A DNA stretch of 64,000 nt from Macrolepiota albuminosa (Eukaryota; Basidiomycota; Agaricomycetes; Agaricales; Agaricaceae): the NCBI GenBank assembly GCA_027475525.1, contig JAMWFC010000025.1, positions 434,001-498,000 of the forward strand, in the 5' to 3' direction. The notes under the pieces are model-generated. The model was not told the origin of the DNA. It did not search any database and saw only the letters and a program-made list of their open reading frames with translations. The translations under genes were made by a program, and so were the position numbers. Shown one piece after another: positions 1-30,606 of this stretch. Each line of letters opens with the position of its first letter. Position 1 is the stretch's first letter.

Positions 1-2
1 TT

Positions 3-2653
3 CCTGATCTCTTCCCGCATTCCCTCGATTATAGTGCCGACGACCCCTTAGCGTCGCCCTTTACCGTGCCGCAACCAATCACCCCCATTACTCCGCTAAC
101 GCCTCTTTCTCAACTCATTTCTCTTACCCCGTCGCCAGTCTCTAGAACTCCTTCCCCATTACCGCTAACCGAACTCGCCAACACAGTCGCTATGGAACAA
201 CAAGTCCAGCGCATGCCGCCACGCAACCACTTCTCGGCACCGAAATGGGACGAGACCAAGCCACGGGAGCTCTCCCAGTATTTCAAGGAGTTGGAGTATC
301 TATTCAGAGATTGTAACATTACCGACCACACGCAGATGAAGGAGTACGCGGCAAGATACGTATCGTATGACACGGCAGAGACGTGGACAGGTCTTACGGA
401 GTTTGCCGCCTTTGTCCCTGCCGCACCGCCAGCTCCAGCTCAAGGCGCTTCGTATGAGGACTGGAAGACGGCAGTTATCCAGCTGTACCCTGGCGCCGAG
501 GAGGCTACCCGATACACGGTAAACGAGTTACAGAAACTAGTACAGGAATCTTTCGACAGTGGCACATCGTCGCTTGGCGCATTCTCTACATATTACCGCG
601 AATTCCAGAAAGTCGCTAGGTGGCTTCTGCAGAACGGCAAGCTCTATATTAACGAGGAGCGTCGCCTATTTCAGCAGGGCATCCCGACTTCACTGTGGAC
701 GCGTATTGCTTGTCGCCTAGAGATAGTTCATCAGGCTCATCACCCAGACGAGCCCTATAACGTTGCCGACGTCTTTGAAGCCGGTAAATGGGTTCTCAAG
801 GGAACGGACACTGGCGTTGGACTGCAGCGCGCTAGGACGAGCCCACCCCCTGAGCGAACTAACGGTATCATTCCCATCCCGCCTCCTGTTGCCGACTTCG
901 TTAAGAAAGAAGAGCTCAATGCTGCTATTACCGCCGCTGTCGCTTCCGCTATGACGCGTATTGAAACCATGATCACCACCAACCTCACGGCTAACCGACC
1001 CGCTAACGTACCCGCGCCTGGCCCTTGCCACTTCTGTGGGGAAATTGGCCATACTATGACTAGAGGACGCTGCGCTACCCTCGAAAACTATATTCGGCAA
1101 GGAAGAATCCGTAGGGCTATCGACGGCAAGATAGTTCTTACCTCTGGCGCCACTATTCCCAACTACCCAGACAAGAAGTCCTTCCAGGAGCGGGTAGATG
1201 AATGGCATAGGCGCAATCCAGGACAAATCGTTACCGGCACGTTATCTGGCAACGCCAACCCCGACCCAGACCAGGCGACTCAACAGCAGATGATCCAGGA
1301 CAAATCGTTACCGGCACGTTATCTGGCAACGCCAACCCCGACCCAGACCAGGCGACTCAACAGCAGATGATCACGAGGTCCTACATTTCGACAGCGTTGG
1401 CGACCGCCCTACTTCTCGCGGGAAGAGCGAATCGCCAAGCTGCAACAGGAGTTGGATTCGCTTAAGAATCAGGTTTTTGATGGGTTGAAGTTAAGCAGCC
1501 CAAACAACCTCTCAAAGGATATAAGCCGATGCCTCCCGCTAGCAAGTTACCGACACCTTCTCCTGCCGCACCGCCTGCTACTGCTCCTGCTCCTGCTCCA
1601 GAACCCTCGTCGTCCGCTACCGCTCCCGAACCGCCTTTGCCGCCTCTCCATCCCTACTCAGGGATTCCCGACCGTTACCATGCTCCCGCACAACGAAACT
1701 TTGCCGCTCCCGAGAAGCGTCCTGAGGGTGGCTACCGACCTACCGCGCCAATTTTCGACATAGAAAAATCGAACCACGTCTTTAACCGCATCATGAAAAC
1801 CGCCGTTACCTTGTCAGTAGAAGAGCTTTGCAGTATTGCTCCCGACGTCCGCAACCAGGTCAAAACGGCAGTCACTCCTCGACGACCCTTGGCGACAGCC
1901 GTTGCCGAGGTTGATGAACTCGACGACGCGCTTCCTGGTTTCTCTGTTACCATTGACGCTCCCGACACTGAAGATACATCTGCCGACTCCATCGCTAACG
2001 CCACCTCTGTGGACCCAGTGGAGACCTACCTTAGGTCGGTGGACCATGGAGAGGACCCCGCGACTCCATCGCTAACGCCACCTCTGTGGACCCAGTGGAG
2101 ACCTACCTTAGGTCGGTGGACCATGGAGAGGACCCCGCTATCCTTACCGTCGCTCAAGAATCACACGCTATCCGCTCAGTCGCGCTAACGGTAGACAACA
2201 AGCACAAGTAGAGGCGATCGTGGATAGCGGTTCCCAGATTATTTCTATGGCAGCAGAAGTCGCTAACGATCTAGGCCTCATTTACGACCCTACGTGATAC
2301 TAAACATGCAGAGCGCTAACGGTACGGTAGACAGATCCCTAGGCCTCGCCAAGAATGTGCCGTGCACCCTTGGCGACATTACGTTTTATCTTCAGATCCA
2401 CATTTTACGCTCCCCGGCTTACGACTTACTACTCGGCAGACCCTTCGACGTCTTGGCGCGATCAGTCGTCAAGACGGTTACCGACGAGGAAACGACCCTC
2501 ACAATTAGCGACCCAAATTCCGGAATCCGACGAACGGTGCCAACGTTCCCTAGGGGACAACGAAAAGGCGCCCGCGCTAAGCCCCCGGAGTTTACCGACC
2601 AGCACGCCAACGAGCCTCCCCACCGGTGTTTTCACAGACCATCAAGGAGGTGA
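3..2653 (+). CDS. gag-pro: Element 1 Gag-protease frame (disrupted, 5' partial)
   Basis: Gag packages the element RNA, and the fused retropepsin cuts the polyprotein. The frame is open from base 3, so it starts outside the window. A retrotransposon Gag core (about 210-720) is followed by a zinc knuckle near 1026-1073 with spacing CX2CX4HX6C, longer at the last gap than the usual X4. The protease shows the catalytic IVDSG near 2216-2233 and a YDLLLGRPF segment near 2420-2447. The frame is interrupted by 77-bp duplications at 1216 and 1984. Single missing bases, judged against element 2, lie near 1372, 1485, 2208 and 2294. The C-terminus ends in CFHRPSRR and overlaps the pol frame by 28 nt, exactly as in element 2. 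Confidence 0.8.
1216..1372. repeat. 77-bp exact tandem duplication A
   Basis: 1216-1292 is repeated at 1293-1369, with identity running on to 1372. It lies in gag just after the zinc knuckle and shifts the frame. One base also seems to be missing just after the second copy. It is probably an unmerged assembly overlap. Confidence 0.95.
1984..2138. repeat. 77-bp exact tandem duplication B
   Basis: 1984-2060 is repeated at 2061-2137. Dropping one copy joins the upstream Gag frame to the segment that reads ILTVAQESHAIRS, matching element 2. Confidence 0.95.
2626..2653 (+). other. Conserved 28-nt gag-pro/pol overlap, candidate -1 frameshift window
   Basis: The protease frame stops at 2653 and the pol frame is open from 2626, in the -1 frame. 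The homologous overlap in element 2 (14426-14453) is also exactly 28 nt and also begins GTGTTTTC. Only this window lets Gag-Pro continue into RT. TGTTTTC is a plausible but non-canonical slip site. An alternative is reinitiation on a separate pol start. Confidence 0.5.
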
Positions 2654-5600
2654 TTGGCGACGATCACGGAGATGTAGCGCTAACGCTGGAATTTGACCAT
2701 TCAACTGGTCTTGTAACTGTTTTGTCTACTGCTTTTCTTGACCAAGACGTTTTAACTACTTTACCCGCTACCGACGCAGAACCTTCCCAGAAAAACCAAA
2801 ATATTACCGACTCCTCTCTTGCCTACTTGTACCTTACCGCTTCCGAGTCATTTCAAAATATTGCGTCTACCGATACTTATCTCACCACTCTTCCCGGAGC
2901 CTCGTCTCCTGCCGTTCTTGGACTTGCCGCTCCTCAGGCTACAGTTCCCCTTTCCACCTCTGTTTATAATCAGGCTAACGCTCCCAAAAGGAAAGGGGTA
3001 CAAGTTAAAAAGAAATATAAGCCAGTTGCGCTTAAAACAAAACCCGTCAGGCTAACGCTCCCAAAAGGAAAGGGGTACAAGTTAAAAAGAAATATAAGCC
3101 AGTTGCGCTTAAAACAAAACCCGTTGCTACGCACTCTCCCGAGACTTTTAGAATCGAGCGCCAGATCATTGGCGACCCTCTTGCCGACATGCCGACCTTA
3201 TCGCCGAATCCGCCACCCTTTCAGCCCACAGGACGTTTTACCGAGGAACGCCAGCAGCAGTTCGCCAAGGAGCACGACACAGGATTTTTGACCAAAGATG
3301 AGTTGAACGTCCTTACCGATCTTGTCGCTAAGCAAGACAAAGCCTTTGCTTGGGAGGACTCAGAACGCGGCAGCCTTCGCACAGATTTCTTCCCGCCTGT
3401 CGTTATCCCGACTATCCCTCACGTGCCGTGGACTGAGCACAACCGACCGCTACCGCCTGGAATCGAAGCCGAGGTCTGCCAAATTATTAGGACCAAGATA
3501 CAGGCTGGCGTCTACGAGCCCTCAAATAGTTCTTACCGCTCCCGTTGGTTCTGTGTTCTCAAAAAGAACGGCAATCTACGCATAGTTCACAGTCTTGAGC
3601 CGCTGAATAGAGTAACCATACGACACTCTGGCGTACCGCCTTTCCCTGACCACTTTGCCGAGTCCTTTGCCGGGCGTGTCTGTGGCGCCACCCTTGATCT
3701 TTATGTTGGCTACGATGAACGCTTAATACACCCATCTTCCCGTGACCTCACCACCTTTCAAACTCCGTTTGGCGCACTGCGCCTAGTCACCTTGCCGATG
3801 GGCTGGACAAACTCAGTCCCCATATTCCATGACGACATCACATTCATCCTCCAACCCGAGATACCGCATAACGTCTTAAGCTTCATTGATGACGTTGGCG
3901 TCAAAGGCCCCAAAGACTGGCGACTCGTAAACGGCTTACCGGCAACCCATCCCGAGAACTCCAACATTCGCTTAGCGCTATGGGACTTTTTCCAGCTGCT
4001 CAATCGAGTTCTCCAGCGTATGAAGTATAGCGGTGGTACGTTTAGCGGTCACAAACTCCTCCTTTGCGCGCCAAGGTTCAAAATACTTGGTCACATCTGC
4101 ACTCCCGACGGTCGTGTTCCCGACGAGTCTCGCTTAGCACTCTTGGAACGCTGGGGTCCTTGCCGCGACTTATCTGAAGTTCGCGCCTTTCTCGGTACCG
4201 TTGGCGTTCTCAGGATATTCGTCAAGAACTTTGCCCATCGCGCACATGCCCTCAACCAACTCACCCGCGCTAACGAGCCCTTCGAATTTGGGCCAGACCA
4301 GGTCACTGCCCAACGCGACTTAGTAAAAGCCTTACAAGACGCCAAGCCCCTAGTCCCCATCGATTATACCTCTGCCGACCCTGTTATCTTGGCAGTGGAT
4401 ACCTCGTACATTGCTGTTGGCTACTTCTTGTGCCAGTGCCTTAGCGACAATCGGAAACAGCGACGCTACAACCGCTTTGGGTCTATCACGCTAAACGACA
4501 GAGAGTCTCGCTACAGCCAGCCTAAGCTAGAACTCTATGGGCTCTTCAAAGCCTTCCGGTCGCTAAAGATGTATTTGATTGGCGTACGGAACCTTATCGT
4601 TGAAGTCGACGCTAGGTACATCAAAAAGCCTTCCGGTCGCTAAAGATGTATTTGATTGGCGTACGGAACCTTATCGTTGAAGTCGACGCTAGGTACATCA
4701 AGGCATGTTGCAGAATCCCGATATTCAGCCATCCGCTAGCATGAATCGGTGGGTAGTCGCCATCCTCATGTTTCACTTTGAGTTGGTACACGTCAAGAGC
4801 TCTTTCCACGGGCTAGCATGAATCGGTGGGTAGTCGCCATCCTCATGTTTCACTTTGAGTTGGTACACGTCAAGAGCTCTTTCCACGGCCAGATGGACTC
4901 TCTAGGCGACCACGGCAGCCTGGCGACCCGGCAGTGGACCCACAGGCTGATAGCGATTTCGAGGACTGGATCGACCGATTGCATGGTTTCGTGCACCTCA
5001 TTCAACAGCCAATTCCCTTACTACGACGGCAACAGCCTACCAGCATCCTGTTACATCCCATAGTCCCTTACCGCCCCGAGACCTTTAGCGCACCCCTCAC
5101 GTTCTACACGGCAAGCATCCACAGTCAAAACTTGCCTCCAGTAAAAGTCGTACAGGAACCTCAGTCGCTAAGAGAAGACAGCAAAAACCTGACCTACGAT
5201 GCCGTTCCCCGATCCGCCAAGGCAAAGGCGGAAGATAGTCGCCTATTGGTAGTCGAGCAATGGATACAAGACCTTAAGCGACCCCCAGACCTTACCGACG
5301 AACAATACGCTACCTTTATCCGCTATGCTACCCACTTCTTCTTTACCGACAACCGACTTTGGCGACGAAATCGAGATGGCGCTCACAAGCTGATCATCAA
5401 GCCAGAAGGTTGCTTACGAGTCTTGCGCGCTATGCATGACGAGCTAGGACATAGAGGTCTGTACGCTACTCGAGCTTCTCTGCTAGAACGATTTTGGTGG
5501 CCACACGCTAGCGCCGACATCGCCTGGTACATCAGCACTTGCCACCTCTGCCAAATCCAACAAACGCGCCAAGTGCTCATTCCGCCAACCGTTGCAACGC

Positions 5601-6604
5601 CAGCTCCACTCTTTAGCAAAATTTACGTCGACACCATGCATATGCCCAAGTCTGGTCGCTACAAGTACATCATTCAAGGTCGTTGCTCGCTAATCCACTG
5701 GCCTGAATTTCGAATGCTTCAAAGAGAAAATACCGAGGCGGTCGCCAAGTGGCTATTTGAGGACGTCATTTGCCGTTGGGGAGCGCTAAGAGAGATCGTC
5801 ACGGATAACGGTGCGCCCATCATCAAAGCGCTAACTTACCTCACCAAGAAATACAACATTCACCACATTCGAGTGTCTGGCTACAACAAACGCGCCAATG
5901 GCCTGGTAGAGAGACCCCACTTTGACGTTCGGCAAGCACTCTTCAAGGCAGTCGATGGCGACGAGTCTCGTTGGAGCGAAGCGACCTATTCAGTGTTCTG
6001 GTCGGAAAGAGTTACTATTCGTAAGCGCATGGGTTGCTCTCCCTATTACGTGGCTACTGGCACCCATCCTTTACTCCCTGCCGACATCATAGAAGCGACC
6101 TATCTTCAACCAGCACCCAACAGTATCTTAGCGACTACCGACCTTATCGCCAGACGAGCCATTGATCTCCAACGAAGGAAGGAAGATTTAGAGCGACTCC
6201 ACGAGGCAGTCTTTAGCGCACGTCGCCAAGCAGCATTACGATTCGAAACCGAGCATAGCGCCACTATCAAGGATTACAACTTCCCGAGGGGCGCGCTAGT
6301 ACTCATGCGTAACTCCAAAATTGAAACCTCATACAACAAGAAAATGCGCCCGCGCTATCTAGGACCTTTGGTAGTTATCGCTCGTAACCGTGGAGGCGCT
6401 TACGTGCTCTGTGAATTAGATGGTTCAGTACTGCATCGACCTGTTGCCGCTTTTCGCCTATTGCCATACCTCGCTAGAGAACAAATCGACTTGCCGCTTG
6501 AAGCGCTAGATATCGACACCACCAAGCTGAGAGAACTTGAAGAAACCGAACTATTGGACGATGATGACTTGCCGACTTTAGTTGAAGAAGAAGAAAACGA
6601 TTAG
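2626..6604 (+). CDS. pol: Element 1 Pol: reverse transcriptase, RNase H, integrase (disrupted)
   Basis: This would copy the element RNA into DNA and integrate it. RT runs from about 3360 to 4050, with KKNGNLRIVHSLEPLN, LDLYVGYDERLIHP in place of the usual palm motif, and FIDDV as the catalytic YxDD equivalent near 3871. RNase H follows at about 4380-4930 (AVDTSY, then SQPKLELYGL). Integrase has an HHCC zinc domain near 5449-5555 and the D,D,E residues in DTMHM, TDNGAP and VERPHF. A GPY/F-type C-terminal domain (RYLGPLVV) and an acidic tail end it; no chromodomain is visible. Duplications of 77 bp at 2970, 4548 and 4735, with one missing base just after the last two, break the frame. Without them the protein would be largely collinear with that of element 2. 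Confidence 0.85.
2970..3124. repeat. 77-bp exact tandem duplication C
   Basis: 2970-3046 is repeated at 3047-3123, in the N-terminal part of pol. Dropping one copy gives an uninterrupted frame collinear with element 2. Confidence 0.95.
4548..4701. repeat. 77-bp exact tandem duplication D
   Basis: 4548-4624 is repeated at 4625-4701, inside RNase H. One base appears missing just after the second copy, compared with element 2. Confidence 0.95.
4735..4888. repeat. 77-bp exact tandem duplication E
   Basis: 4735-4811 is repeated at 4812-4888, at the end of RNase H. One base appears missing just after the second copy. Confidence 0.95.
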
Positions 6605-7032
6605 AAAAGAATATATATTGATAAGCTCTTTCTTTCTATTACTTACTTTACTTATCTTTCTTGCCGATACTTACCATACTATATTCAACAGACAATTCCT
6701 TACGTAGTCAAGTCGCAGCGCTAGCGTGTCGCCAACGCTTAGCGCATTGCGCAACTCTCGCCAAGGGTTTTTCGCCATGATGATTTACTGAGCGTTTCCC
6801 TTTTCTCAAAAATTTGTCTAAGTCCCACACCTACTACTCCTCTTGCTAAAAACTTACTTTAGAACACTTACCGCTTGCTTTCTCGTTGCCATACATTTCT
6901 TGATCTCTGCCGTTGCGTTAACTCAGATTACTAGACTCATCCGTCCACTCGGCAAGGAGGCGGCAAAAACAAATATATATCGAAACGGCAAGAGAAAATA
7001 TAAACAAGACGGCCTATCTACCCTAAGGTCCG
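6605..7032 (+). other. Non-coding spacer of element 1 between pol and the antisense gene
   Basis: No gene is visible in these 428 bases. The stretch is dense in TTRSCG/CGSYAA words: I count eight (for example at 6661 and 6901-6991), against less than one expected. It separates two convergent transcription units, pol on + and the accessory gene on -, so it should contain both 3' ends. Confidence 0.6.
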
Positions 7033-9438
7033 TCAGTCATCATCCTCTGAAAGCGACATCGAGTCGTCGAGCGGCAAGAGATCGCCAACTTGCACGTGGT
7101 TGAGGGCCTGCCACTCTAGCGCCTCGTTGCAGTCCGCCTGGTACTCTTGAAGGGCGTCCATGCTACGAGTCAAATTGGCGTATCGAAGGCGAGAGGCCAT
7201 GATTTGTTGCCGCACCCGCTCGCGCTCGCGACCCAGTACCGCTTGCATACTTGCCGCACGCGTCGCCATCCGCTCTATCACTTGAGGGGGGTACAAAGCC
7301 ACCACCGGATAGACGAGGTCTTCCCCCAGCCACTCGTAAGTGTCGCCAGTGACTCTTGGCTGAGGCTGGGGGGTCCACGATGAAGGCCCACTCGAGCTTG
7401 TCCAAAGCTGCGTCGCCAAGTCACCTTCACTTACCCAGGGGGCGGCAGGCTCCACTGCCGGCAACTCCTGGGACTCGCCAGGGAAGTCCCGCAAAGTCTC
7501 TTCCATCGCCCCTTCGCCCTCTACCACCTCTTCTGCCACTGGCTCCCTAGCCGCGGTTCCCGCCTCGTCGTTTTCGCGTTGAGTCGCCAAGGTTTCTTCT
7601 TCACCCTCGGCGTCCTCAGTCCCTCCCGTTGCCGCCTTCTCGGCCTTCTCTTCATCCTCCATCTCCACATCTGCAGGGACCTCTTCCCGCTCCTCTGGTG
7701 GCGCCGAGTCGCCAACCGCTGCCCGCTCTCCCACCTCCTCCCCCCCGCCAAGGGACCTCGCCGCCAAATGGATGGGCGACAAGAGGCCACTTGGGCCTGC
7801 CTCGGAATCTTGAGGGGGCAGGCGACTCGCCGCTAATGCCCTCTGCAAGTCTTCCATCTCGGTGTCGCGAGGGGCTGGCGAGGGGGGAGGTGAAGAGACC
7901 ACCCGAGGTCGCTTTGCCTTGCCCTTCCCTTTGCTGGGGGAAGGGGCTTGTCGTTTTGTGGGGACCGCAGTCCCTTGGCGCTCTCCGGCGCCACGATTGC
8001 CGACCGTTTCGTTTTCATCCCCTTGACGCGTCGGCAGCGCCAGGGAACTCTTGCTGATTAAGGCCGCGTCGCCAGCGGCCTGCTTCTTCCTCTCCCCCTC
8101 GACGAACTCCCGCGCCCTTCTTACGAGTACGGCACGCTTGAAAGTGCGCTCCACTACCGCGTCGGGAGCCCCACCGCGTTCACGACTCTTGGCGCCGTCC
8201 AAAGTGCAAGCTCGTTTTAGCGTCCCGCACCGGTAGCAGGGCTGGCCACCGGTGGGGTACCAACACCCCTCTGGGTCGTTGTCGGCCCAGCACTTGTCGC
8301 ACTACAGAAGTGTTAACAAACGCGGTAAGAAGAGCTACAACCCTTACCGCTCCTTGGGAGTCCTTGAACTCCCGTCTTGCCGCCGGACTTGCCGTCTTCT
8401 TGTCCTTCATCTCCGGCAAGACCACCCCCGCCTCCAATCCTTCATCTAAAACCGCCTCATCTCGTCGCGCCACCAACAGACCCTTCAGCTCTGAGTCGCT
8501 AAAGGAGGTTTGTGTTGGTACCTGTCAACTAGCTGGTTAGCAGGGGAAGTACCTTGGCGCGACGAGCTTACCGCGTAGCGAGGGGCGGCAGCCTTACGAG
8601 ACTTGAAATAGGATGAACAGCGGTCGCCAACAGTAAGAAAGGAGGAGACTTACCTTCTTTTTCAAAGTCTTGCCCGGCTTAACTGGGGAACCCATGCTGC
8701 TTGCCGGCAGTGCTGGGTTCTGGGCACTGCCGGCGCGGGAATCTTTACTCGACCCAGCGACTGCGGACTCCTGCCTTTTCGTAGCAGGCGCCTTCCCCTT
8801 GCCGACGACCTCCTCCTCACCAGTGACTTCGCGCCCTTCTTGCGCCTGGAGCCTTTCCTGGGCATCCCGTGACGCCTCGGCAAACGCTTCCTCACGAATG
8901 GCAGCCATCTCGGCATCAACCTGAAGGTTGGCGAGAGGCGCCAATACCTCTTGCTTACTGCTAGGAGACAAATCAGACCACAGCTAAAGTTAGAAATAAC
9001 AATCAGAGATACTTACTCAGGCGCGGGAGCGCTTACCGTCATCGGCAAGGCGCCAGACAAAATATCCTCCAGTTCGTCCTCGATTGTCGGGACGGGAGGG
9101 GGCGCCTGGCAACTCGATCAGCTAGCGACACGGCAAGGACTGAAAGCACTCACAAAACGGGAGAAAGGCGCTAACCACTCAGCGCCACGATTGTCTACGT
9201 ACCGCGCCCGGCACCACTCTCGCACCTCAATCTCCCGATCCCACCCAACGCCAAGTACTCGCACCTCATACCACCGCTCCAATAATCTCATTACGCCAAC
9301 GACCAGATTTGCAGGCGCTTCGGCGCCAACACCCTCGATCCGCCGGATAAAGCGGTTCGCCTTGTCAATGTATGCGGAGGCAGCGTCTTGAGCCTCGCGG
9401 GACGGTACTGGGGGCGGAGTTGGAATTCGGAAGGACAT
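7033..9438 (-). CDS. Antisense accessory gene of element 1: 726-aa protein with Zn2Cys6-like cluster
   Basis: I do not recognise a named family. Six exons join in phase: 9438-9154, 9105-9017, 8960-8654, 8601-8522, 8498-8348 and 8301-7033, with GT-AG introns of 42-57 nt, giving 726 residues from the ATG at 9438. Exon 6 opens with a cysteine cluster at residues 305-336, CX2CX8CX8CX2CX6C, close to the fungal Zn2Cys6 pattern but with a longer first loop and without its usual basic residues. A long acidic, Ala/Glu-rich, probably disordered stretch follows. Near the C-terminus is a helical, Arg/Gln-rich segment that could be a coiled coil, then an acidic end. There is no signal peptide or membrane segment. 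It lies antisense between pol and the 3' LTR, so its promoter should lie in or near the LTR. A role in DNA binding is inference. Confidence 0.75.
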
Positions 9439-9597
9439 ATTTTAATTTCTGAGCGCCAGGTAAAAAAGGGGGAGAAGAAACGAAGTCCAAACTCATGCGC
9501 CAGGACTATAAACTAAATCTCAAGAACGCACGGACCACTTGTCACAAAAGCGGTAACGGTAGCCTTATTTGGTGACTGAGGACAGTCAATTTTTCAG

Positions 9598-9608
9598 TTG
9601 GGGGGAGA
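9598..9608 (+). other. Polypurine tract of element 1
   Basis: A G-rich purine run sits directly before the TGATAGG that opens the 3' LTR. This is the expected position of the plus-strand primer in Ty3/gypsy elements. A second purine run at 9462-9485 is not followed by an LTR-like start. Confidence 0.6.
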
Positions 9609-10512
9609 TGATAGGACCCTATACAGGTTAGGCGCATCAACGGCAGGCTCGGCACCGGCCCCGGAAACCTTGCCGCACTCGTTCCGAACTTAGCGCACGC
9701 GTTCTACCTATTTTAAGCCATTTCTGACGGCCGCGCACGGCAAGAAGCAGATCCAATCAGTGATAGCGCCGATCGGCAGACAGAATGACAACTGACAGAT
9801 GGCATCAGTCACTGACGACAGCGCTTAGCGAGAAGTTTGATGATCTATCAAAAACTGACGGACAGCTTGGCGTTTGACCTTGGCGTCTGACACCGCTTAC
9901 CGTCTCGATTTGGCGCCCAACGTCGCTTAGGTGTTTTGACAGACAGAAGGGTGATGGATTGATGGTTTAGCACCGCGATCTGCCGCCTGGTGGCGCCAAG
10001 GGTCCTCAAAGGACGGTAGGGATCGGAAACCGTTGGAGCAGCCCCTTTGAAATTTTCCAGTTTACCGCACTCTGGCGTCATTAGCCACTGGCGACGGCAA
10101 ACTCATTGTAGTATAAAAGTACTTACCGACTTGTACATAGAGGAGAACAATAGACCACAGTTTACTCCCCTTTCCTCAGTCTCCCTTACGCTCAAGAGCT
10201 CATTTACGCTACAGTCGGCAACGTCGAACTCATCGGTAGTTACAGACGCTCGCCAACACTCGACACACTCGCGCCTTGCAACTACGGCAGGCATTATCGA
10301 CGCTTAGACTTCGCTAAGCTTACCGTGCTCTTGCCGCTTACCTTTGCCGTGTTCGCTTACCGCTCTTTCCTAGGCGCTTTACCTTAGCGCTTTACACTTG
10401 CCGACCCCGTTACCGACTTTTACCCTTTTTCACAGACGCGTTCTCTGGGACCTGCCCGGGACTCCTCAAATCACTTATAGCGCGCCCAACGCACACTCTT
10501 GGTACGGTAACA
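9609..10512 (+). repeat. 3' LTR of element 1
   Basis: It starts TGATAGG, the same seven bases that open the LTR of element 2, directly after the purine tract, and ends in GGTAACA. The next base begins element 2 pol sequence. The length is 904 bp. It contains about 22 TTRSCG/CGSYAA words, roughly eleven times the chance rate, with the densest cluster at 10316-10415. The antisense accessory gene starts 171 bp outside its left end, so antisense LTR promoter activity is plausible. The matching 5' LTR is outside the window, so the ends are inferred. Confidence 0.7.
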
Positions 10513-13500
10513 CTCCAGTTACATTTGTTACTGACCAAACTTTGGGCGTCATCATCGTCCACCAACTCAGTCTCTTCAAGCTCTCGCAGTTTGGCCGTGT
10601 CAATGTCTAGCGCCGGCAAAGGTAGTGGAATGTGTTCACGCGCTAAGTAGGGAATGAGTCGAAACGCCGCTACCGGTCGATGCAAAACCGAGCCGTCCAA
10701 CTCGCAGAGTACGTAGGCTCCTCCCCTATTGCGGGAAACTACTATGAGGGGCCCTAGGTATCGAGGTCGCATCTTTTTGTTATGGGTTACTTCGATTTTC
10801 GAGTTGCGCATTAGCACTAAGGCGCCAGCTGTAAAGTTGTAGTCTCGGATAGTAGCGCTATGCTCGCTTTCAAATCGTAATGCGGCCTGTCATCTAGCGC
10901 GCCAGCTGTAAAGTTGTAGTCTCGGATAGTAGCGCTATGCTCGCTTTCAAATCGTAATGCGGCCTGTCATCTAGCTTGAAATACCACCTCGTGTAGGCGC
11001 TCTAGATCCTCCATGTGTCGTTGTAAATCAATGGCGCGCCTAGCGATAAGATCAGTAGAGGACAGGATTGAGTTAGGTGGTGGTTGTAGGTATGTTGCCT
11101 CCACAACGTCTGCTGGAAGCAGGGGATGGGTGCCAGTCGCCACGTAGTAGGGAGAGCAGCCCATCCTCTTCCGTACGGTAACTCGTTCAGACCAAAAGAC
11201 CGAATAAGTCGCTTCGCTCCAGCGACTTTTGTCGCCGTCTACCGCCTTAAATAGCGCCTGTCGTACGTCAAAATGTGGCCTTTCCACTATACCGTTAGCG
11301 CGTTTATTGTATCCTGAGATCCGAATATGCTGTATGTTGTATTTCTTAGCGAGGTAGGTAAGCGCCTTAACTATTGGCGCTCCGTTGTCTGTAACAATCT
11401 CGTGAAGGGCTCCCCATCTGCAAATAACATCTTCGAAGAGCCACTTAGCTATTGCGTCGGTATTTTCCCGCTGGAGCATACGGAACTCTGGCCAATGCAC
11501 CAAGGAACACCTTCCCTGGATAATATACTTGTAGCGCCCCGACTTGGGCATGTGCATAGTGTCGATATATATTTTTCCGAACAAGGGTGCTGGAGTCGCT
11601 ACGGTTGGGGGAATAAGGACTTGGCACGTCTGTTGGATTTGGCAGAGATGACAAGTACGAATATACCATGCGATATCGGCGCTAACTTGAGGCCATCAAA
11701 AATGTTCCAATAAATTTGCCCGCATCGCGTAGAGTCCTCGATGTCCCAGGTCATCATGCATAGCATGCAAAATCCTAACGCAGCCCTCTGGCTTGATTAC
11801 TAATTTGTGAGCGCCCGACCTATTTCGTCGCCAAAGCCGATTTTCCACCATAAAGAAAGTCGTTGCATATCGAATGAAGGTGGCGTATTCTGTATCCGTA
11901 AGGTCTGATGGTCGGCGCAAATCCTGTAACCATTTCCTAACCTGATCAACTCGTTGGTCTTCTGACTTAGCCTTGGCGCTACGAGGTACCACCGAATATG
12001 GAAGGTTGCGACTATCTTCCCGTAAGGGTCTTGGTTCCTCGACTATCTTTAGATCATTATGCGGCTTAGCGACGTTATAGATACTGGCCGTGTAAAAAGT
12101 CGATGGAGCCTGATACGGTTTAGGTTGGTATGGAATGATAGGGTGTAGCCAGGTCGAGATAGGTTGGTCTTCATGAAGGGCCGAAATAGGCAATTGAATA
12201 ATATGTATGAAACTGTGCAACCGGTCAATCCAGTCGTCAAATACGTCATTATCGCTTTCGTCTAGCGCTTCATCCTCCGGCTGCCTAGGTCGCCTAGATA
12301 GTCCATCAGGTCCGTGAAACGCACTTTTGACATGCACGAGCTCGAAGTGGAACATTAGTATCGCTACCACCCAGCGATTCATGCTAGCCGAAGGTTGAAT
12401 GTCTGGATTCTGGAGCATTCCTTTGATGTAGCGTGCGTCAACTTCGACAATCAGGTTTCGAACCCCAATAAGATACATGCGTAGCGCCTGAAACGCTCGA
12501 AACAATCCGTATAATTCCAGTTTGGGCTGACTATAGCGTGACTCTCTGTCGTTAAGGGTAATTGATCCGAAGCGATTGTAGCGTCTGATTTTTCGATTCA
12601 TGCTATCACATTGACATAAAAAGAAGCTGACCGCAATGTAAGAGGTGTCAACGGCAAGTATAACGGGATCGGACGTAGTGTAGTCAATGGGTACCAATGG
12701 CTTCGCTTCCTGCAGCACCTTCACTAAATCTTTTTGGGCGTTAATTTGGTTGGGTCCGAATTCAAAGGGGACCCCTGAACGAGTTAAGCGATTTAGCGCG
12801 TGCGCTCGATGTGAAAAATGGTGTATGAACATGCGCAGCACGCCTACCGTGCCTAGAAACGCAAGCGATTTAGCGCGTGCGCTCGATGTGAAAAATGGTG
12901 TATGAACATGCGCAGCACGCCTACCGTGCCTAGAAACGCACAAACTTCCGAGAGGTTATGGCAGACTCCCCACTTCTCTAGAAGCGCTAATCGGCTCTCC
13001 TCAGGGATCCTGCCTTCTGGCATGCAAACGTGCCCTAAAATTTTAAATTGTTCTCTAGAAGCGCTAATCGGCTCTCCTCAGGGATCCTGCCTTCTGGCAT
13101 GCAAACGTGCCCTAAAATTTTAAATTGAGGCACGCAAAGAACCAACTTGTGTCCTGAGAACGTTCCACCACAATATTTCATACGCTGGAGCACCCGGTTA
13201 ACCAATTGGAAGAAGTCCCATAGCGCCATGCGGATATTAGGATTTTCCGGGTGCACTTCGGGCTTACCATCTACAAGGCGCCAATCTTTTGGGCCTTTAA
13301 TGCCTACATCATCGATAAAGCTAAGCACATGGTGGGGTATTTCAGGTTGTAGAACAAACGTAATGTCGTCGTGGAATATGGGTACTGAATTAGTCCATCC
13401 CATGGGAAGTGTAACCAGTCGTAGCGCTCCGAATGGCATTTGAAATGTCGTTAAGTCGCAAGAGGAAGGGTGAATCAAGCGCTCGTCATAGCCAACGTAT

Positions 13501-14453
13501 AGATCCAGGGTAGCGCCACATATTCTTCCCGCGAACGATTCAGCGACATGATCAGGGAAGGGCGGTACCCCTGAATGACGAATCGTGACTTTGTTTAGCG
13601 GCTCCAAACTGTGAACTATACGTAGCTTTCCATTTTTCTTCAGTACACAAAACCATTGTGATCGGTATGCCGAATTGGAAGGCTCGTAAACTCCTGCCGC
13701 TATTTTGGAACGAATAATTTGGCAAACTTCAGCTTCAATACCCGGTGGTATAGGTCGGTTATGCTCAGTCCAAGGCACGTGAGGTATCATCGGTATAACC
13801 ACTGGTGGAAAGAAGTCGGTTCTAAGTTTACCGCGTTCGGAATCCTCCCAAGCAAATGCTTCATTTTGTTTTCGCATAATGTCGGTCAATACATCTAGTT
13901 CCGCCGTCGATAGAAAGCCTGTATCGTGGGCGCTAAGGAATAGCGCCCGTCGTTCTTCTGTAAATTGTCCTGTAGGCTCGAAGGGTGGTGGGTTTGGATT
14001 AAGTTCGGGAAGGGTCGCTAATGGGTTTCCAATGATCTTTCTCTCAATGCGAAATTCTTCGGGTACGCCGCTCGCTACCGGTTTTGTTTTAAGTGCTACT
14101 GGTTTGTATTTCTTTTTAACCTGAACCCCTTTGCGCTTAGGGGTACTGTTGTTAGCAAACGTATTATAAATGGAACTCTGGTTTCTAGCGAAACCGGATA
14201 TCAAAGGTTCTTTAGCATCAGGAGTAGAAACGAAATAAGTGTCTGTCAAAAGATTTTCAGTAATATCGGATGCAGTGAGGTATAAGTAGGATAAAGCTTT
14301 GCTAGTAAGCGACGTAGAAATGTTCAAGATTTCAGGGGCTAAAGGGGTATGTGATATAAAGGTTACTTGCCCAGTCCGATGATTATAGTCCAAGATAAGC
14401 GCTTCATCTCCATGATCCTCATCACTCATCTCCTCGATGGCGCTGGAAAACAC
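10513..14453 (-). CDS. pol: Element 2 Pol: reverse transcriptase, RNase H, integrase (disrupted, 3' truncated)
   Basis: The domain order matches element 1. RT (about 13720-13190) has KKNGKLRIVHSLEPLN, LDLYVGYDERLIHP and the catalytic FIDDV. RNase H (AVDTSYIAV, SQPKLELYGL) follows at about 12650-12300. Integrase has the zinc domain near 11760-11640 and D,D,E in DTMHM, TDNGAP and VERPHF (11560-11250). The C-terminal domain (RYLGPLIVV) leads to an acidic tail cut by element 1 at 10513. A Trp codon became TGA near 11698. Duplications of 77 bp at 12974, 12786 and 10822 break the frame. The pol frame opens 28 nt upstream of the gag-pro stop, as in element 1. Confidence 0.85.
10822..10975. repeat. 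77-bp exact tandem duplication F
   Basis: 10822-10898 is repeated at 10899-10975, inside the C-terminal part of element 2 integrase. Confidence 0.95.
12786..12940. repeat. 77-bp exact tandem duplication G
   Basis: 12786-12862 is repeated at 12863-12939, between RT and RNase H of element 2. Confidence 0.95.
12974..13127. repeat. 77-bp exact tandem duplication H
   Basis: 12974-13050 is repeated at 13051-13127, just after the RT domain of element 2. Confidence 0.95.
14426..14453 (-). other. Conserved 28-nt gag-pro/pol overlap in element 2
   Basis: The overlap length, -1 frame relation and opening GTGTTTTC are the same as at 2626-2653 in element 1, although the surrounding codons differ. That supports a functional frameshift rather than a random break. 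Confidence 0.5.
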
Positions 14454-17094
14454 TCGCAGGGTTCGTCGCTAACATAAGGTCGCTTTCTTGGTCCTGGCTT
14501 CTGGAACCGTCCTCGAGGAAATGTCAGTACTGTTCTCCTGACTCCAGAATTGGGGTCGCTAATAGTTAGCATTGTTTCCTCCTTGGACGTTGTTTTGACT
14601 ACTGATTGCGCTAGCACATCGAAGGGCCTTCCTAATAATAAATCGTAGGCAGGTGATCTAAGTATGTGAATTTGCAAATAGAACGTAAGATCGCCTATAG
14701 CACATGGCACGTTCCGAGCCATCCCCAAGGATCGATCAATCGTGCCGTTAGCGCTCTGCATGTTAAGAATGATTGTTGGATCGTAAATGATACCCAGCTC
14801 GTTAGCGACGTCGGCAGCCATTGAAATAATTTGTGATCCGCTATCCACGATCGACTCTATTTCGCTTTTCCCATCAACTGTCAGCATGATTGAGCGAATC
14901 ACGTGAGAGTCTTGGGCTACAGTTAAAATGGCGGGATCGTCGCTAGATCTTAGCGATTTTAGGTATGTTTCGACCGGGTCGACGGACGTGGCTTCTTTAG
15001 GTGGTGCGACCTCTTTCTTGGTTTCTGGGGCTACCGTCTCAGTTATATACGCGAAACCAGGCAGCGCGTCGTCGCATTCGTCCACCGTCGCTACATTGTT
15101 AGCTACGTTTCGTCGAGGGGTAACCGCGGTACGCATCTGGTTCCTGACGTCTGGCGCCACGCTGCATAACTCTCCTACCGATAGCGTAACCTGACTTTGC
15201 ATGATGCGATCAAAAACTAACTTAGACTTCTCCAGATCATATATAGGCGCTGTGGGTCGATATCCCCCCGTAGGTTTATCTGGCGCTCCGAAGTTACGAT
15301 TAAGGGGCGGGGCGTAGTTGCCCCCGAGACCAGCGTAAGGATGTAGCGGTGGCTCTGGAACGGCCGGCGCCTTGGCGGCTTCTAATACTTCGTCGTTAGC
15401 GCTAGAGGTTGAGGCTGGTGCTGGGGCGGGGCCTGTCGTAGCGCCCGAAGGTCTATAATCCTTTAAAGGCTGCTTGCCCTTTTTGATCTCCACCCCATCG
15501 AAGACCTGATTCTTTAGCGACTTCAGTTCCTTCTCTAGCGTCTCAATCCTCTCTTCGCGGGACAGTGTGGGTCGGTCGCTGATAGCGTTTAGCTGAAGAA
15601 CTTCGTGAATTAGTGCTTGTTGAGGAGTTGCCTCAGTTTCTGTTGTCGCCGTGCTATTCAGGTTGCCTGTCGCTAAGTTCCCGGGGTTCCGGCGGTGCCA
15701 CTCGTCAATGCGTCCCTGGAACGTCTTATGCTCAGGATAAAGGGGAATGCTAGCGCCCAAAGATAAGACTAGTTTCCCATCCATTCCCCAGCGCGCCTTC
15801 CCTTGTCATAGATACTGTTCAAGGATAGCGCACCTACCCCTGGTCATGGTATGTCCTGCTTCACCGCAAAAATGGCAAAGTCCTGTTTGTACGTTATTTC
15901 TAGGCGCCGATAGACTCGTCGAGATCAAGGTTTCCAGTTTATTCATGACATTAGCGACTGCATTGTTGACGGCAGTTTCCAAATCCTCCTTCTTGACGTA
16001 CCCATTACGGTCATTGGCGGCGCTAGGCGCTGGCGACTCTATCTTGGGTGCCATTCCTCCATGGTCCGCACCAGGTCGCTGTAGTGGTATACCTGTATCC
16101 GTGCCTTTTAATACCCATTTTCCTGCCTCAAAGACCTTTTCTATGTCGTAAGGTTCCTCGGGGTGATGGTCGTGCATAATGATCTCTAAGCGTCGCGCAA
16201 TCTTAGTCCATAATGACATCGGGAATCCTTGTTGAAACAAACGGCGCTCCTCGTTTCCATATAACTTCCCATTTTGGACCAGCCATCTCGCTATCCGCTG
16301 GAAATCACGATAAACAAACGGCGCTCCTCGTTTCCATATAACTTCCCATTTTGGACCAGCCATCTCGCTATCCGCTGGAAATCACGATAATAAGTTGATA
16401 ACGCTCCTAGAGTGTAAATCCCAGCCGCGAAAGTGTCTTGGACTAGCTTCTGGATTTCCATTACCGTATAACGCGTAGCTTCTTCGGCGCCAGGATATAA
16501 ATGAATGATAGCCTTTTTCCATTCATCATAGGTAAAAGGCCTGGGTGGTGCGTCACTAGTAAGTCCTTGGAACTCCTTCAACCCTGTCCATGATTCGGCT
16601 GTGTCGTATGAGACGTATCTGGCGGCATATTCCTTCATCTGTGTATCGTCGGTTATCCGGCAATTGCGTAGCAGATACTCCAACTCTTTGAAGTACTGCA
16701 TTAGTTCATGAGGCTTTGTTTCGTCCCATTTTGGTGACGAGAAGTGGTTTCGGGGCGGCATGCGCTGATTGTTCGGCTGATCCATACCGATAGGTGTGTT
16801 TGTCGAGGTAGGAAGGGTGGTGGTGCTCGTGTTACTTAGCGTCGATGTCGTAGGTACCAGCTCAGTTAGTTCCGAGTCGCTAGGTTCTGGCAATAATAGC
16901 CTAGATAACTCTTCTAGAGGCGTAAGCGGCGTATGGTTTTCGCCTGCTAAGTACTCAAATGGTCGGGAAAAAGGGAAAAAGCTTTCGGCTAAGCTGTCTG
17001 GGGCGGCCTCAAGCTCCTGATCCAAAGTCTGTCTTGGTAGCGTGCCTGGTAAGTGTGGTGAGTCGGTGGTACTTGGTTCAAGCGTGCTCTCCAA
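14426..17094 (-). CDS. gag-pro: Element 2 Gag-protease frame (disrupted)
   Basis: The start is the ATG at 17094, 58 nt downstream of the primer site. A Pro/Ser/Thr-rich N-terminus of about 110 residues precedes the Gag core that begins near MPPRNHFSSPKWDETKP. The zinc knuckle CX2CX4HX6C lies near 15890-15840, with the same unusual spacing as element 1. A disordered linker leads to the protease, with catalytic VDSGSQ near 14850 and YDLLLGRPF near 14640. A CGA codon has become TGA at 15808-15806. A 77-bp duplication at 16235 splits the frame. The C-terminus ends in CFPAPSRR and overlaps pol by 28 nt. Confidence 0.8.
16235..16388. repeat. 77-bp exact tandem duplication I
   Basis: 16235-16311 is repeated at 16312-16388, inside the Gag core of element 2, where it splits an otherwise continuous frame. 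Confidence 0.95.
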
Positions 17095-17151
17095 CAGGAG
17101 GCGGCGCTGTCGCTGGGCTTGAGTTTCCGGCGGAATTCTGTCTCAGAAGAA

Positions 17152-17170
17152 CCCCTCGCGGTGGGCTCCA
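17152..17170 (-). other. Primer binding site of element 2
   Basis: On the minus strand a TGG-initiated stretch of about 17 nt lies three bases after the LTR end, the expected place for annealing of a tRNA 3' CCA end. I cannot name the tRNA. Confidence 0.5.
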
Positions 17171-17318
17171 AAATGATGACGCCAACTGTGGTTGGGTGCG
17201 CTGGACGTATACGCAGTACAACGCCGTCTCCAGCGCTTGGCGCTCCAAAATGATGACGCCAACTGTGGTTGGGTGCGCTGGACGTATACGCAGTACAACG
17301 CCGTCTCCAGCGCTTGGC
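17165..17318. repeat. 77-bp exact tandem duplication J
   Basis: 17165-17241 is repeated at 17242-17318. It spans the LTR/primer-site border, so the first bases of the LTR end appear twice. Confidence 0.95.
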
Positions 17319-18398
17319 ATGCGTAGTTGTGAGGAGTCCTGACAGGGTCCCGGTGTGCTCGAGTGGAGGTAGTAAAACCGTCTCCAGCGCTTGGCATGCG
17401 TAGTTGTGAGGAGTCCTGACAGGGTCCCGGTGTGCTCGAGTGGAGGTAGTAAAATGATGCGCTAGCTTATAGCGCTTCGGGGGCTACCTGGCAGACGGTA
17501 AGCGTCATAGTTTAGGCAAAGATATTGGAGAAAAGACGAATAGCGCAGCGTATTGTGCCCGTAGGTGGCACCGTAAACGATGAAGACAAGATGGACGAAG
17601 CTAGCGCCCGACTTAGTGAAGAAGTCGAAGGAAGCTAGCACGAGTTGAACGCTAAGTGTAACTGTTTGTTTGAGGGGTTACAATTCGTTGTTATATACAT
17701 GTAAAGTAGCTATTTTATATACCATGCGCTACCATGTTTGTCCAGATACAAGTCCACCTGCGGCACTACCTCCTAGCGCCTCTCCTCGTGGTTTCCTCTA
17801 ACGGCAACCTGTCAACGGCAACCTTTGGCACATGGATGACGGCGACCAACGGCGTTCTGACCCACGGTGACCAGCGGCGACTCTATATTGGCTTAGAATT
17901 GCATGAGTCTGCTCACTTTTATTCTAACTCCAATTGGCCAGGCTGTTTTGGGGTATGGTCAGAAAATCCTCGACAGACGCTGTGAGCGCTAGTGTCAGTG
18001 CTACTCATTGTATTAGTTCCTGACAGGTCCAGATGTCGGATTTAAGTATATCCAGTGCTGCCGTCATTGATCCTTTTAGACTTCTGATTGAAGTGCCTCG
18101 TCAAATGGCAGCGCCTGTTGCTGACTCTTTCTGGAAGTGATCAGGGTTTAGTTAGAGTCCTCTCCCGCCGTCGTGTTAGCGCTATACGTTATGGGCCTCC
18201 TTCGTCCTTGGGATAGGTGAATGGAGTGTGCTGAAAGCTGGGTAGCTAGTGGTTAGGATAAATGTCTAGATCCTGTAGTCAGTTGCCAGAGCTAGAGCTG
18301 CTCTATATTCCCAACTGGTCACTAGAGCCTTTAGTACGTCAAGTGTTGGTTGGCCTATAATGTCCCTTGATGCGCTCAGTCCGAGTAGAAGCCTATCA
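17174..18398 (-). repeat. 5' LTR of element 2
   Basis: On the minus strand it runs from TGATAGGC at 18398 to CATCA at 17174. It is 1225 bp here, or about 1070 bp without the two 77-bp duplications. The ends are supported by related copies at 41724-44924, including one of about 1.06 kb at 42949-44009. It contains about nine TAGCGC/GCGCTA words, against about 0.5 expected. The right flank is ACGGT; the matching target-site copy is outside the window. Confidence 0.75.
17301..17454. repeat. 77-bp exact tandem duplication K
   Basis: 17301-17377 is repeated at 17378-17454, within the 5' LTR of element 2 and overlapping duplication J. The decayed LTR copy at 42949-44009 has only one copy of this segment. 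Confidence 0.95.
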
Positions 18399-18723
18399 AC
18401 GGTTGTGAATGATGTAATTGTGTTGTTCGTTATCATAATGGGTGGGGGTTTCCTTGACATGACAGGATGCTGATTCTTCTCTGCACATAACAGGTGACAA
18501 GGAGCGCCAATCGGCGTAGTCGAGACGTCGGGTGTGGGTGCCATGGCGATCGGAGTACCCATGAGGCACACCCGGGTTGTTGGGTAAGGAGTGATTATAT
18601 GGAAGAGCCCCTGGTAACTGACTAGACTTCTTCATTGCCTGTCAGGCATGATAATGTTTGGTGCTCTGGACTTTCAGACCAGAGGGGGCTCTCCAGGTGC
18701 ACAGGGTGTCTTTGTAAGTCTGC
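18399..18723 (-). other. 3' untranslated part of element 3
   Basis: This lies between the integrase stop and the LTR of element 2. A purine run near 18681-18690 could belong to the polypurine region. No gene is visible. Confidence 0.4.
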
Positions 18724-29256: not shown

Positions 29257-30606
29257 GTCGTATGTCGTGAATGTGAAGAGTGCGGAATGAAGAACTCGGA
29301 AAGAGATGGACGAGAATATTTATTCCGGAGCTCGGGTATTGTCGGTTGCCGGACTTTGTGGAAGCGCACGGCCGAATGTAAATCAAGCGACATTCACAGC
29401 GTGATATTTTCCGCCTTTTTTTTTGCGCGCATATTCATTCTCATTTTTTTTGTGGGGCGAATTCAATGGTTGCGATATATTGTGACGCAGTTTCATGCAT
29501 TGTCAGAGTCGGTCCCAGTGATCAGACACCGTGACAATCACTGGAAGTCGGACGGGCCGAAAGAAATGATGGCTCCCGTTTATTTTTGCTTCTTCCGTTA
29601 CCCCACAATCCTACAAGTCCTACTTACCCCGCAATGAGCCACAAGACTCTTTTCCACTATGTATGCACGGCTCAATTGGTACTTCACCTCTCTCGTCAAT
29701 TTTCGCTCCTGTTTGTACGGTGATCAATTGGTTCCATCCGGGCCGCACCTGATCACATTCTGAGACGGACCACGTGCCCTGAACCTGAGGTCTGGGGCCA
29801 TTTTTCAAATACAAAACGAATACCTCTTTTTAAATTTATAAACCTTGTTTCAATCCGACCTAGGCTCGCACTGTGATAACTCTGTCGAAAGCGGCCTCAC
29901 TGCCTTGTCTTTGGCGGTCAATTTTCTCACCTCATTCAAGTACTACAAGAAGAATGTCGCTTCACGCTGGCAAGGATGCTATCGCGGATACAAACCCAGA
30001 CATCTAAGCAACAGGTCACCGGTCACCGGTCAGGCCGAATGTATCGTTAATAGAAGATCCTTGTGGCACGTTTGTTTCATCGAAGCTTAGTACCATATTC
30101 CGACCTCACTAGAAAGGAACTGTCCTTCGATACCCAGCAGCACTAAGCTGAACAACCGCTCAACAGAAGCCATGTACTCAAAACTCATATGCTACTTGAC
30201 GTCTACCCGGGGTCTCAAGACGTCTTTCCTTATGTACTCAGGACATCTTTTGTGATCGAGAGATCATGAGGTCAAGATTAGAATAGATTTACACTCCTTC
30301 TACTTATGTGCTTTAAAGTCTAAAACACGATGTTTTTCTGTATCTCACTGAGTTAGCAGGAGGATAAGTTGCACTCTCAGACTGTCTACACGTGTCGAGT
30401 CGACTATCAGTTTGATTTTGTCTTGAAAGTAAAACAGAGACACAATGAAATGAGACGAATCGGGACAAACACCGAAAATGGTGACAAGAAGTAACCGAGG
30501 GGATGGCTTCGCTCAGGGTCCGGACAACTCTTAAAGCAACGGGCGAGGAATCGTACCATCTTCTTCCGCCCGTGTTTGCTTTGTTGCTCCCCCCACATCG
30601 GCAACG
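29257..30606. other. Divergent intergenic region
   Basis: 1.35 kb between the start of the dehydrogenase gene (-) and the start of the gene at 30607 (+), so both promoters should be here. I see no convincing TATA box and no further gene. Confidence 0.5.

What the first reader, a model, noticed from the sequence alone, without database searches (positions are those of the whole stretch)
1..10512. Element 1 is saturated with the degenerate hexamer TTRSCG/CGSYAA
Seen: all four forms (TTACCG, TTGCCG, TTAGCG, TTGGCG) and their complements recur throughout. By hand count: 23 in 9421-10440 (mostly LTR), 8 in the 426-bp spacer 6605-7030, 12 in 1-600, 10 in 5041-5640 and about 34 in the antisense gene. 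Chance is about 2 per kb. Controls gave 4 in 18721-19680 and 3 in 30601-31600. Enrichment in non-coding parts and on both strands argues against codon bias alone. Known parallel: VANDAL DNA transposons of Arabidopsis carry dense short motifs that their own VANC proteins bind to remove silencing. Inference: a motif-based self-recognition system in a fungal LTR retrotransposon.
Basis: partly seen in the sequence, partly recalled or inferred. Interest (0 to 1): 0.9.

Follow-up and report, generated by a model that had tools for sequence, protein, structure and literature searches.

The report
Retrotransposons saturated with self-specific DNA motif
Two related fungal jumping genes each carry their own short DNA signature scattered through their whole length and apparently kept by selection, and each has a related accessory gene that may read it, which resembles an anti-silencing system known from plant transposons.

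Summary
Element 1 (window 1-10554; Ty3/Gypsy-like; its 5' end lies outside the window) holds 173 TTRSCG sites against 24.6 in dinucleotide shuffles; the four forms are the four most enriched hexamers. DNA outside the elements (18501-64000) is at chance (63 vs 56.5). The excess survives codon-preserving shuffles, lies on both strands, in LTR, spacer and coding parts, and recurs in 30 of 30 accessory-gene loci cut out.

New here: the relative it is nested in, element 2, with pol 81% identical in protein, has a different saturating word, CGCTA (104 vs 29.0), and keeps only 3 of 47 aligned element-1 sites. Element-1 sites are lost at half the neutral rate, other CpG hexamers at 0.85. Both elements carry a homologous antisense gene with a six-cysteine cluster, without Pfam or PDB match; all listed homologs are from Termitomyces.

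Best reading: an element-encoded protein recognises its own family's word along the whole element, most likely to oppose silencing, as VANC does for Arabidopsis VANDALs. It is not a VANDAL.

The parts
1..9608 (+). Element 1 (E1), internal region held in the window (5' LTR and leader lie upstream, outside the window); TTRSCG at about 14-19 per kb in its main parts
   Evidence: 5' LTR at L040 7866-8811
3..1370 (+). gag-like ORF (only a weak, sub-threshold CCHC match); 24 TTRSCG vs 5.7 in codon-preserving shuffles
3036..4643 (+). RT/RNase H ORF; 27 sites vs 7.0
4859..6604 (+). integrase ORF (H2C2 zinc domain); 24 sites vs 4.1; also carries the E2-type word TAGCGC (10 vs 1.7)
6605..7030 (.). non-coding spacer between convergent gene ends; 8 sites vs 1.1
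7033..9441 (-). antisense accessory gene in several exons (start codon near 9439); 38 sites in 7031-9441 vs 5.1
8206..8301 (-). six-cysteine cluster CX2CX8CX8CX2CX6C, candidate DNA-reading domain
   Evidence: three cysteines invariant, three at 90% or more in 21 aligned proteins
8302..8347 (-). predicted 46-nt GT-AG intron of the accessory gene; splicing it gives the QGA-CD junction also seen in P0011
   Evidence: read by eye; compared
9609..10554 (+). 3' LTR of E1 (946 bp, 100% identical to the 5' LTR; TG...CA ends, 4-bp TSD TCGT); 23 sites in 9611-10554
10555..17173 (-). Element 2 (E2), gag-pol part of the element into which E1 inserted; saturating word CGCTA
   Evidence: the rest of E2, with its own accessory gene, is at L040 1587-7865
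17174..18398 (-). E2 5' LTR region (97-99% identical in matched pieces to the other E2 LTR at L040 1587-2734)

Best explanation
E1 and E2 are two lineages of Ty3/Gypsy-like LTR retrotransposon in a Termitomyces-like fungus. Each encodes, antisense to pol, a Cys-cluster protein that recognises a short family-specific CpG-containing DNA word (E1: CGSYAA = TTRSCG; E2: CGCTA, often GCGCTA). Selection keeps this word at about 16 (E1) or 8 (E2) per kb along the whole element, coding parts included. Occupancy of many weak sites marks the element as self and most likely keeps its own inserted copies from being methylated and silenced, without touching host genes or the rival family. Shown: the excess, its family specificity, its retention above expectation, and the homologous accessory genes.
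For: E1 173 vs 24.6; 45.5 kb of other sequence at chance. 30 of 30 accessory-gene loci cut out (L009-L038, the best of 62 listed matches) hold 11.5-17.5 sites per kb; 14 E1-lineage loci tested against shuffles hold 39-86 vs 7.4-12.5. Codon-preserving shuffles: gag 24 vs 5.7, RT 27 vs 7.0, INT 24 vs 4.1, accessory exon 17 vs 3.7. E2: CGCTA 104 vs 29.0; 10 of 10 E2-type loci (one being E2 itself) 22-28 vs 6.8-9.5, and two more divergent copies 21 vs 7.1 and 13 vs 4.9. Twelve loci of one other retrotransposon family show CGCTA at chance, 3-5 vs 2.7-3.5. Pol of E1 and E2 is 81% identical in protein, 69% in DNA; E1 sites kept in E2: 3 of 47; 17 of the other 44 lie where the amino acids are the same. 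Site loss 94 vs 188.5 expected (0.50), pooled other CpG classes 0.85. Both orientations are used, 93 and 80, which favours duplex DNA over RNA as the thing read. The accessory proteins are homologous, 48% identical over 132 residues beginning at the Cys cluster, and differ within it. The host has DNA methylase domains, and older E2 copies show CpG>TpG at 2.4-3.4 times the non-CpG rate, as expected if dead copies are methylated.
Against: No binding, methylation or expression data exist here. The Cys cluster has no Pfam, NCBIfam or PDB match, and AlphaFold gave no confident fold for it. Only two motif lineages were found, so co-change of word and protein rests on n=2. In E2 the protection is relative only: losses 131 vs 136.1 expected (0.96), gains 39 vs 47.0, other CpG 5-mers lose at 1.45; 9 of 117 classes were as low. 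11 of 292 control classes were kept as well as TTRSCG in E1. New sites arise at or only slightly above the neutral rate. The branches share sequences and are not independent. E1 also has an excess of CGCTA (77 vs 24.6, 36 of these being TTAGCG), so the two words are not cleanly separate. The one other retrotransposon family shows a two- to threefold TTRSCG excess, 8-15 vs 4.0-4.7 in 12 loci, largely the word CGCCAA in coding sequence; against codon shuffles 9/5.8, 12/8.3, 13/7.2, 2/1.2 and 13/8.0 in five of those loci.
Confidence: 0.5

Rival explanations
1. The accessory protein coats the newly made cDNA (or the pre-integration complex) of its own family, protecting or importing it; the dispersed word gives cis-preference among mixed families.
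For: Sites are spread over the whole element including coding parts, slightly more evenly than random (CV 0.87 vs 0.98, 3.6% of random placements as even), as a coating role would need; both orientations are used.
Against: An antisense, intron-bearing gene beside the 3' LTR looks nuclear-regulatory rather than part of the gag-pol particle (inference); nothing here shows the protein in particles.
Confidence: 0.15
2. The accessory protein is a conventional transcription activator of its own LTR; sites elsewhere are auxiliary.
For: Densest in the LTR (11 in 9611-10112, 12 in 10113-10554; 22-27 per kb).
Against: A promoter activator does not need about 16 sites per kb through gag, pol and its own coding sequence, where losses are also below expectation (loss ratios: pol 0.30, acc 0.55, spacer 0.53, LTR part 0.25 on 2 vs 8.0).
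Confidence: 0.12
3. The word is read by a repressor: element-encoded self-limitation, or a host silencing factor.
For: The evidence so far does not say which sign the effect has.
Against: Host-repressor sites should be lost, not retained; here loss is half of expectation. Self-limitation would be unusual for a lineage with identical LTRs and seven full-length matches to the accessory region at 100% identity.
Confidence: 0.08
4. A mutational or compositional bias (codon use, reverse-transcriptase context bias, CpG decay sparing one context).
For: Every site contains CpG, and CpG decay is visible in old copies; another retrotransposon family has a mild excess of one of the four forms.
Against: Excess over both dinucleotide and codon-preserving shuffles; different words in two elements whose RT/RNase H is 82% identical; no excess of the deaminated forms TTRSCA (19 vs 18.0) and TTRSTG (14 vs 18.3); CpG not hypermutable in E1 lineages in four of five trios (C>T ratio 0.53-0.80; the fifth 1.80).
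Confidence: 0.05
5. The word is an RNA signal (packaging or RNA binding).
For: Gag-like proteins bind repeated RNA words in some elements (recalled).
Against: Both orientations used about equally (93 and 80), although the form TTACCG alone is lopsided, 30 to 4; a signal in sense RNA should favour one.
Confidence: 0.04

Closest known systems
Arabidopsis VANDAL21/VANDAL6 (Mutator-like DNA transposons) with VANC21/VANC6 anti-silencing proteins (PMC5735166, PMC10398659; passages read)
   Same: Mobile element with dense short family-specific DNA words; related families use different words and encode related but different accessory proteins; density rather than a single site marks the target.
   Different: LTR retrotransposon in a fungus; words dispersed through coding and non-coding DNA, not in non-coding tandem repeats; six-Cys accessory protein antisense to pol; binding and desilencing shown for VANC, not here.
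Fungal DNA transposons encoding TET/JBP dioxygenases (PMC12730594; passages read)
   Same: Proposed escape from silencing by element-encoded factors in mushrooms and other fungi.
   Different: An enzyme rather than a motif reader, as far as the passages show; [quoted passage not shown]
Plant LTR retrotransposons with additional ORFs, some antisense (PMC7264820, PMC11963269; start of abstracts in search listings only)
   Same: Extra ORF beside gag-pol; PMC11963269's title points to a long stretch between pol and the 3' LTR.
   Different: No motif saturation mentioned in the text seen; different hosts; shared protein family not tested.
Fungal Zn2Cys6 (Gal4-type) regulators, which read CGG/CGC-type triplets (recalled, not searched)
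   Same: Six-Cys cluster, and words built on CG-S.
   Different: Spacing CX2CX8CX8CX2CX6C departs from the recalled CX2CX6CX5-12CX2CX6-8C; no Pfam match; single sites without clear dimer spacing.

Membership tests
Ty3/Gypsy-like LTR retrotransposon | paired LTRs with TG...CA ends, TSD, PBS and PPT | tested here: met
   LTRs 946/946 identical, TSD TCGT, purine tract before the 3' LTR, PBS-like stretch after the 5' LTR read by eye
Ty3/Gypsy-like LTR retrotransposon | order RT-RNase H then integrase | tested here: met
   RT_RNaseH and RT_RNaseH_2 above cut-off in ORF 3036-4643, Integrase_H2C2 in ORF 4859-6604; RVT_1 itself below cut-off
VANDAL/VANC anti-silencing system | Mutator-like DNA transposon | tested here: not met
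   LTR retrotransposon
VANDAL/VANC anti-silencing system | family-specific dense short motif, different in a related family | tested here: met
   E1 TTRSCG, E2 CGCTA
VANDAL/VANC anti-silencing system | motif in non-coding tandem repeats | tested here: not met
   sites throughout coding DNA; the only tandem repeats reported in 1-10554 are five 77-nt pairs, probable assembly artefacts
VANDAL/VANC anti-silencing system | accessory protein binds the motif and removes methylation | not testable with these tools
   needs EMSA/DAP-seq and methylation data
VANDAL/VANC anti-silencing system | accessory protein homologous to VANC | not tested
   no VANC sequence was compared; the homology searches listed only Termitomyces proteins
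Zn2Cys6 (Gal4-type) DNA-binding domain | match to the Zn2Cys6 family or its fold | tested here: inconclusive
   no such Pfam match, no such PDB sequence match, AlphaFold models unusable for the cluster; Cys spacing differs from the recalled consensus

The most novel reading that the evidence does not exclude
A retrotransposon family has rewritten its whole genome, coding sequence included, into a dense address code for a self-encoded DNA-binding protein, and sister families in the same nucleus have diverged to different codes so that each protein protects only its own copies: a fungal, retrotransposon counterpart of VANDAL/VANC, evolved independently and spread over the entire element.
Probability: 0.45. 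Interest if true: 0.92.

Novelty: new variant of a known kind. Interest (0 to 1): 0.85.

Why it matters
In the papers seen here, sequence-specific anti-silencing by a mobile element is documented for plant VANDAL DNA transposons. A second, apparently independent case in a fungal LTR retrotransposon would suggest that motif-coded self-recognition is a general way for parasites to escape silencing while sparing the host. It would supply a new candidate DNA-reading protein family with two natural specificities to compare, and would show that selection on DNA words can reshape synonymous sites across a whole element. It is directly testable with two proteins and two short words.

Tried and rejected
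Codon bias alone: rejected by codon-preserving shuffles. Tandem-repeat amplification as in VANDAL: not seen, no repeats in 1-10554 other than 77-nt pairs. Dimer or fixed-spacing sites: no clear spacing; the commonest same-strand distance, 13 nt, occurs 7 times among 52 close pairs. Targeting of new insertions into motif-rich DNA: not supported as a rule; of 8 LTR loci, three have 0 and one has 3 sites in the kilobase beyond the LTR 3' end, the other four 6, 10, 16 and 17, which may be other elements or the element's own interior and were not resolved. A third specificity inside the E1 lineage (L052-L055): not seen, the same forms are enriched in the same region. Other Termitomyces accessory types (P0011, P0002) in this genome: the best matches looked E1/E2-type, so no third motif lineage could be read (lists capped). 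Relatives in viral contigs: none. Structure: full-length model of P0002 mean pLDDT 54.8, Cys-cluster fragment 46.8; Foldseek with the full-length model gave 0 matches at E<=0.001. Papers on such a system: none recognised in the listings of the nine searches.
Full report
What was checked. The window is C77:434001-498000 of an unnamed 100-Mb genome. The accessory-protein relatives listed are all named Termitomyces (19 of 19, 9 of 9 and 85 of 85 hits; two of these searches scored only the best of their candidates), so the host is probably Termitomyces or a close relative; this is an inference. In 1-10554 there are 173 TTRSCG sites against 24.6+-4.7 in 200 dinucleotide shuffles (maximum 40); in 18501-64000 there are 63 against 56.5+-7.5. 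The four forms are the four top-ranking hexamers.

Anatomy. Element 1 (E1) is a Ty3/Gypsy-like element of about 11.7 kb: 946-bp LTRs, 100% identical, TG...CA ends, 4-bp TSD TCGT, gag-like, RT-RNase H and integrase ORFs, a spacer, and an antisense gene in several exons ending at 7033 and starting near 9439. E1 sits inside a second element, E2, in opposite orientation, whose LTRs are 97-99% identical in matched pieces. E2's remaining part, outside the window in L040, has its own antisense gene with similar exons (by eye).

Not codon use. Shuffling synonymous codons within each ORF, which keeps the protein and the codon counts, gives gag 5.7, RT 7.0, INT 4.1 and accessory 3.7 against 24, 27, 24 and 17 observed. 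The non-coding spacer (8 vs 1.1) and the two LTR parts (11 vs 1.4 and 12 vs 1.2) are at least as dense. As a control, five ORFs of another retrotransposon family give 9/5.8, 12/8.3, 13/7.2, 2/1.2 and 13/8.0. That control is one family: its 12 loci (of 150 RVT_1 matches) resemble E1 RT at about 24% identity in 11 of 12, and those 11 are 96-99% identical to one another; L064 gave no clear match.

Across the family. 30 of 30 accessory-gene loci cut out (L009-L038, of 62 matches listed) carry 11.5-17.5 sites per kb; 14 E1-lineage loci tested against shuffles, including four with 67-72% identical accessory proteins (L052-L055), show 39-86 against 7.4-12.5. Sites turn over but the number stays: between the window and L052, 49 and 53 sites in the aligned part, 28 shared. 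In nine three-way comparisons, losses were below the mean expectation in 18 of 18 branches and gains at or above it in 15 of 18. Pooled over 7 trios (14 branches, sharing sequences and so not independent), losses were 94 against 188.5 expected, ratio 0.50, while CpG hexamer classes not overlapping the sites gave 0.85 pooled; 11 of the 292 classes with enough data were as low. Retention by reduced loss, rather than a rush of new sites, is what the data show.

A different word in the sister element. The unbiased hexamer test on 10441-17500 ranks GCGCTA/TAGCGC first (34 vs 4.6). Over 12.9 kb of E2, CGCTA is 104 against 29.0, and TTRSCG only 59 against 28.4, 30 of these being TTAGCG, which contains CGCTA on the other strand. 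Ten of ten E2-type loci (L041 being E2 itself) show 22-28 CGCTA against 6.8-9.5, and two divergent ones 21/7.1 and 13/4.9. The other retrotransposon family is at chance for CGCTA (3-5 vs 2.7-3.5 in 12 loci) and two- to threefold above for TTRSCG (8-15 vs 4.0-4.7), largely through CGCCAA. Aligned pol of E1 and E2 (1077 codons) is 81% identical in protein and 69% in DNA; third positions at conserved amino acids agree in only 33-46%. 3 of 47 E1 sites are E1 sites in E2, and 8 of 30 E2 sites are E2 sites in E1. E1's integrase part is an exception, with TAGCGC 10 against 1.7. In E2 the retention is relative: 131 losses against 136.1 expected (0.96) while other CpG 5-mers lose at 1.45; 9 of 117 are as low (24 overlapping trios of 9 loci).

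The candidate reader. The antisense proteins of E1 and E2 are 48% identical over the 132 residues that begin at the Cys cluster; short stretches of the first and last exons also look alike (by eye). The cluster, CX2CX8CX8CX2CX6C, has three invariant and three nearly invariant cysteines in 21 aligned proteins. No Pfam, NCBIfam or PDB family is recognised, and structure prediction failed for the cluster, although N- and C-terminal helical parts were modelled with fair confidence. Both words share a CG-S-Y-A core (E1 CGSYAA, E2 CGCTA), as expected of homologous readers that shifted specificity; that zinc-cluster regulators read CGG or CGC triplets is recalled and suggests, but does not show, a related mode. 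Because the gene is antisense to the genomic RNA, its introns can survive retrotransposition (inference).

How it most likely works. Sites lie in both orientations (93 and 80), without clear dimer spacing, slightly more even than random. I infer that the protein occupies many weak sites along its own DNA, that density gives family specificity, and that the outcome most likely is protection from CpG methylation. In favour: every site contains a CpG; the host has DNA methylase domains (4 matches); and old E2 copies show CpG decay (C>T 2.4-3.4 times non-CpG in 4 of 4 trios), whereas E1 lineages do not in 4 of 5 trios (0.53-0.80; the fifth, with L055, 1.80). The sign of the effect is not known; coating of cDNA, ordinary activation and self-limitation remain open.

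Comparison with the known. The closest system is VANDAL/VANC (PMC5735166, PMC10398659; passages read). This works like it in having dense, family-specific words and related but different accessory proteins. It is not a member: the element class is different, and VANC motifs lie in non-coding tandem repeats. Fungal TET/JBP-bearing DNA transposons (PMC12730594; passages) are another proposed route of escape, said there not to have been found in retrotransposons. Nine literature searches listed nothing that I recognised as a motif-saturated retrotransposon; the library lacks most subscription papers.

Verdict. The self-recognition reading is the best available, at about one half for the anti-silencing form; binding and methylation assays would settle it.

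Noticed in passing
window 1216-1369, 1984-2137, 2970-3123, 4548-4701, 4735-4888, 10817-10970, 12786-12939, 12974-13127, 16235-16388, 58261-58414: Ten tandem duplications with a 77-nt unit (nine exact, one 97%) in E1, E2 and elsewhere, some breaking ORFs; the constant length suggests a k-mer assembly artefact rather than biology.
   Followed up: partly
window 4859-6604: The E1 integrase region carries, besides TTRSCG, an excess of the E2-type word TAGCGC (10 vs 1.7 in codon shuffles), perhaps a trace of recombination or of an ancestral word.
   Followed up: partly
window 3036-6604 and 10560-14468: E1 and E2 pol are 81% identical in protein but third positions at conserved amino acids agree only 33-46%: synonymous sites look close to saturation.
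   Followed up: partly
L040 4217-5197: In this E2 copy the accessory exon departs, within the Cys cluster, from the frame that is open in other copies (326-aa vs mostly 348-aa ORF).
   Followed up: no
L041-L050: E2-type copies show CpG to TpG change at 2.4-3.4 times the non-CpG rate in 4 of 4 trios, pointing to CpG methylation of silenced copies in this host.
   Followed up: partly
window 42065-44698: Rearranged fragments similar to the E2 LTR region, in direct and inverted copies (76-87%).
   Followed up: no
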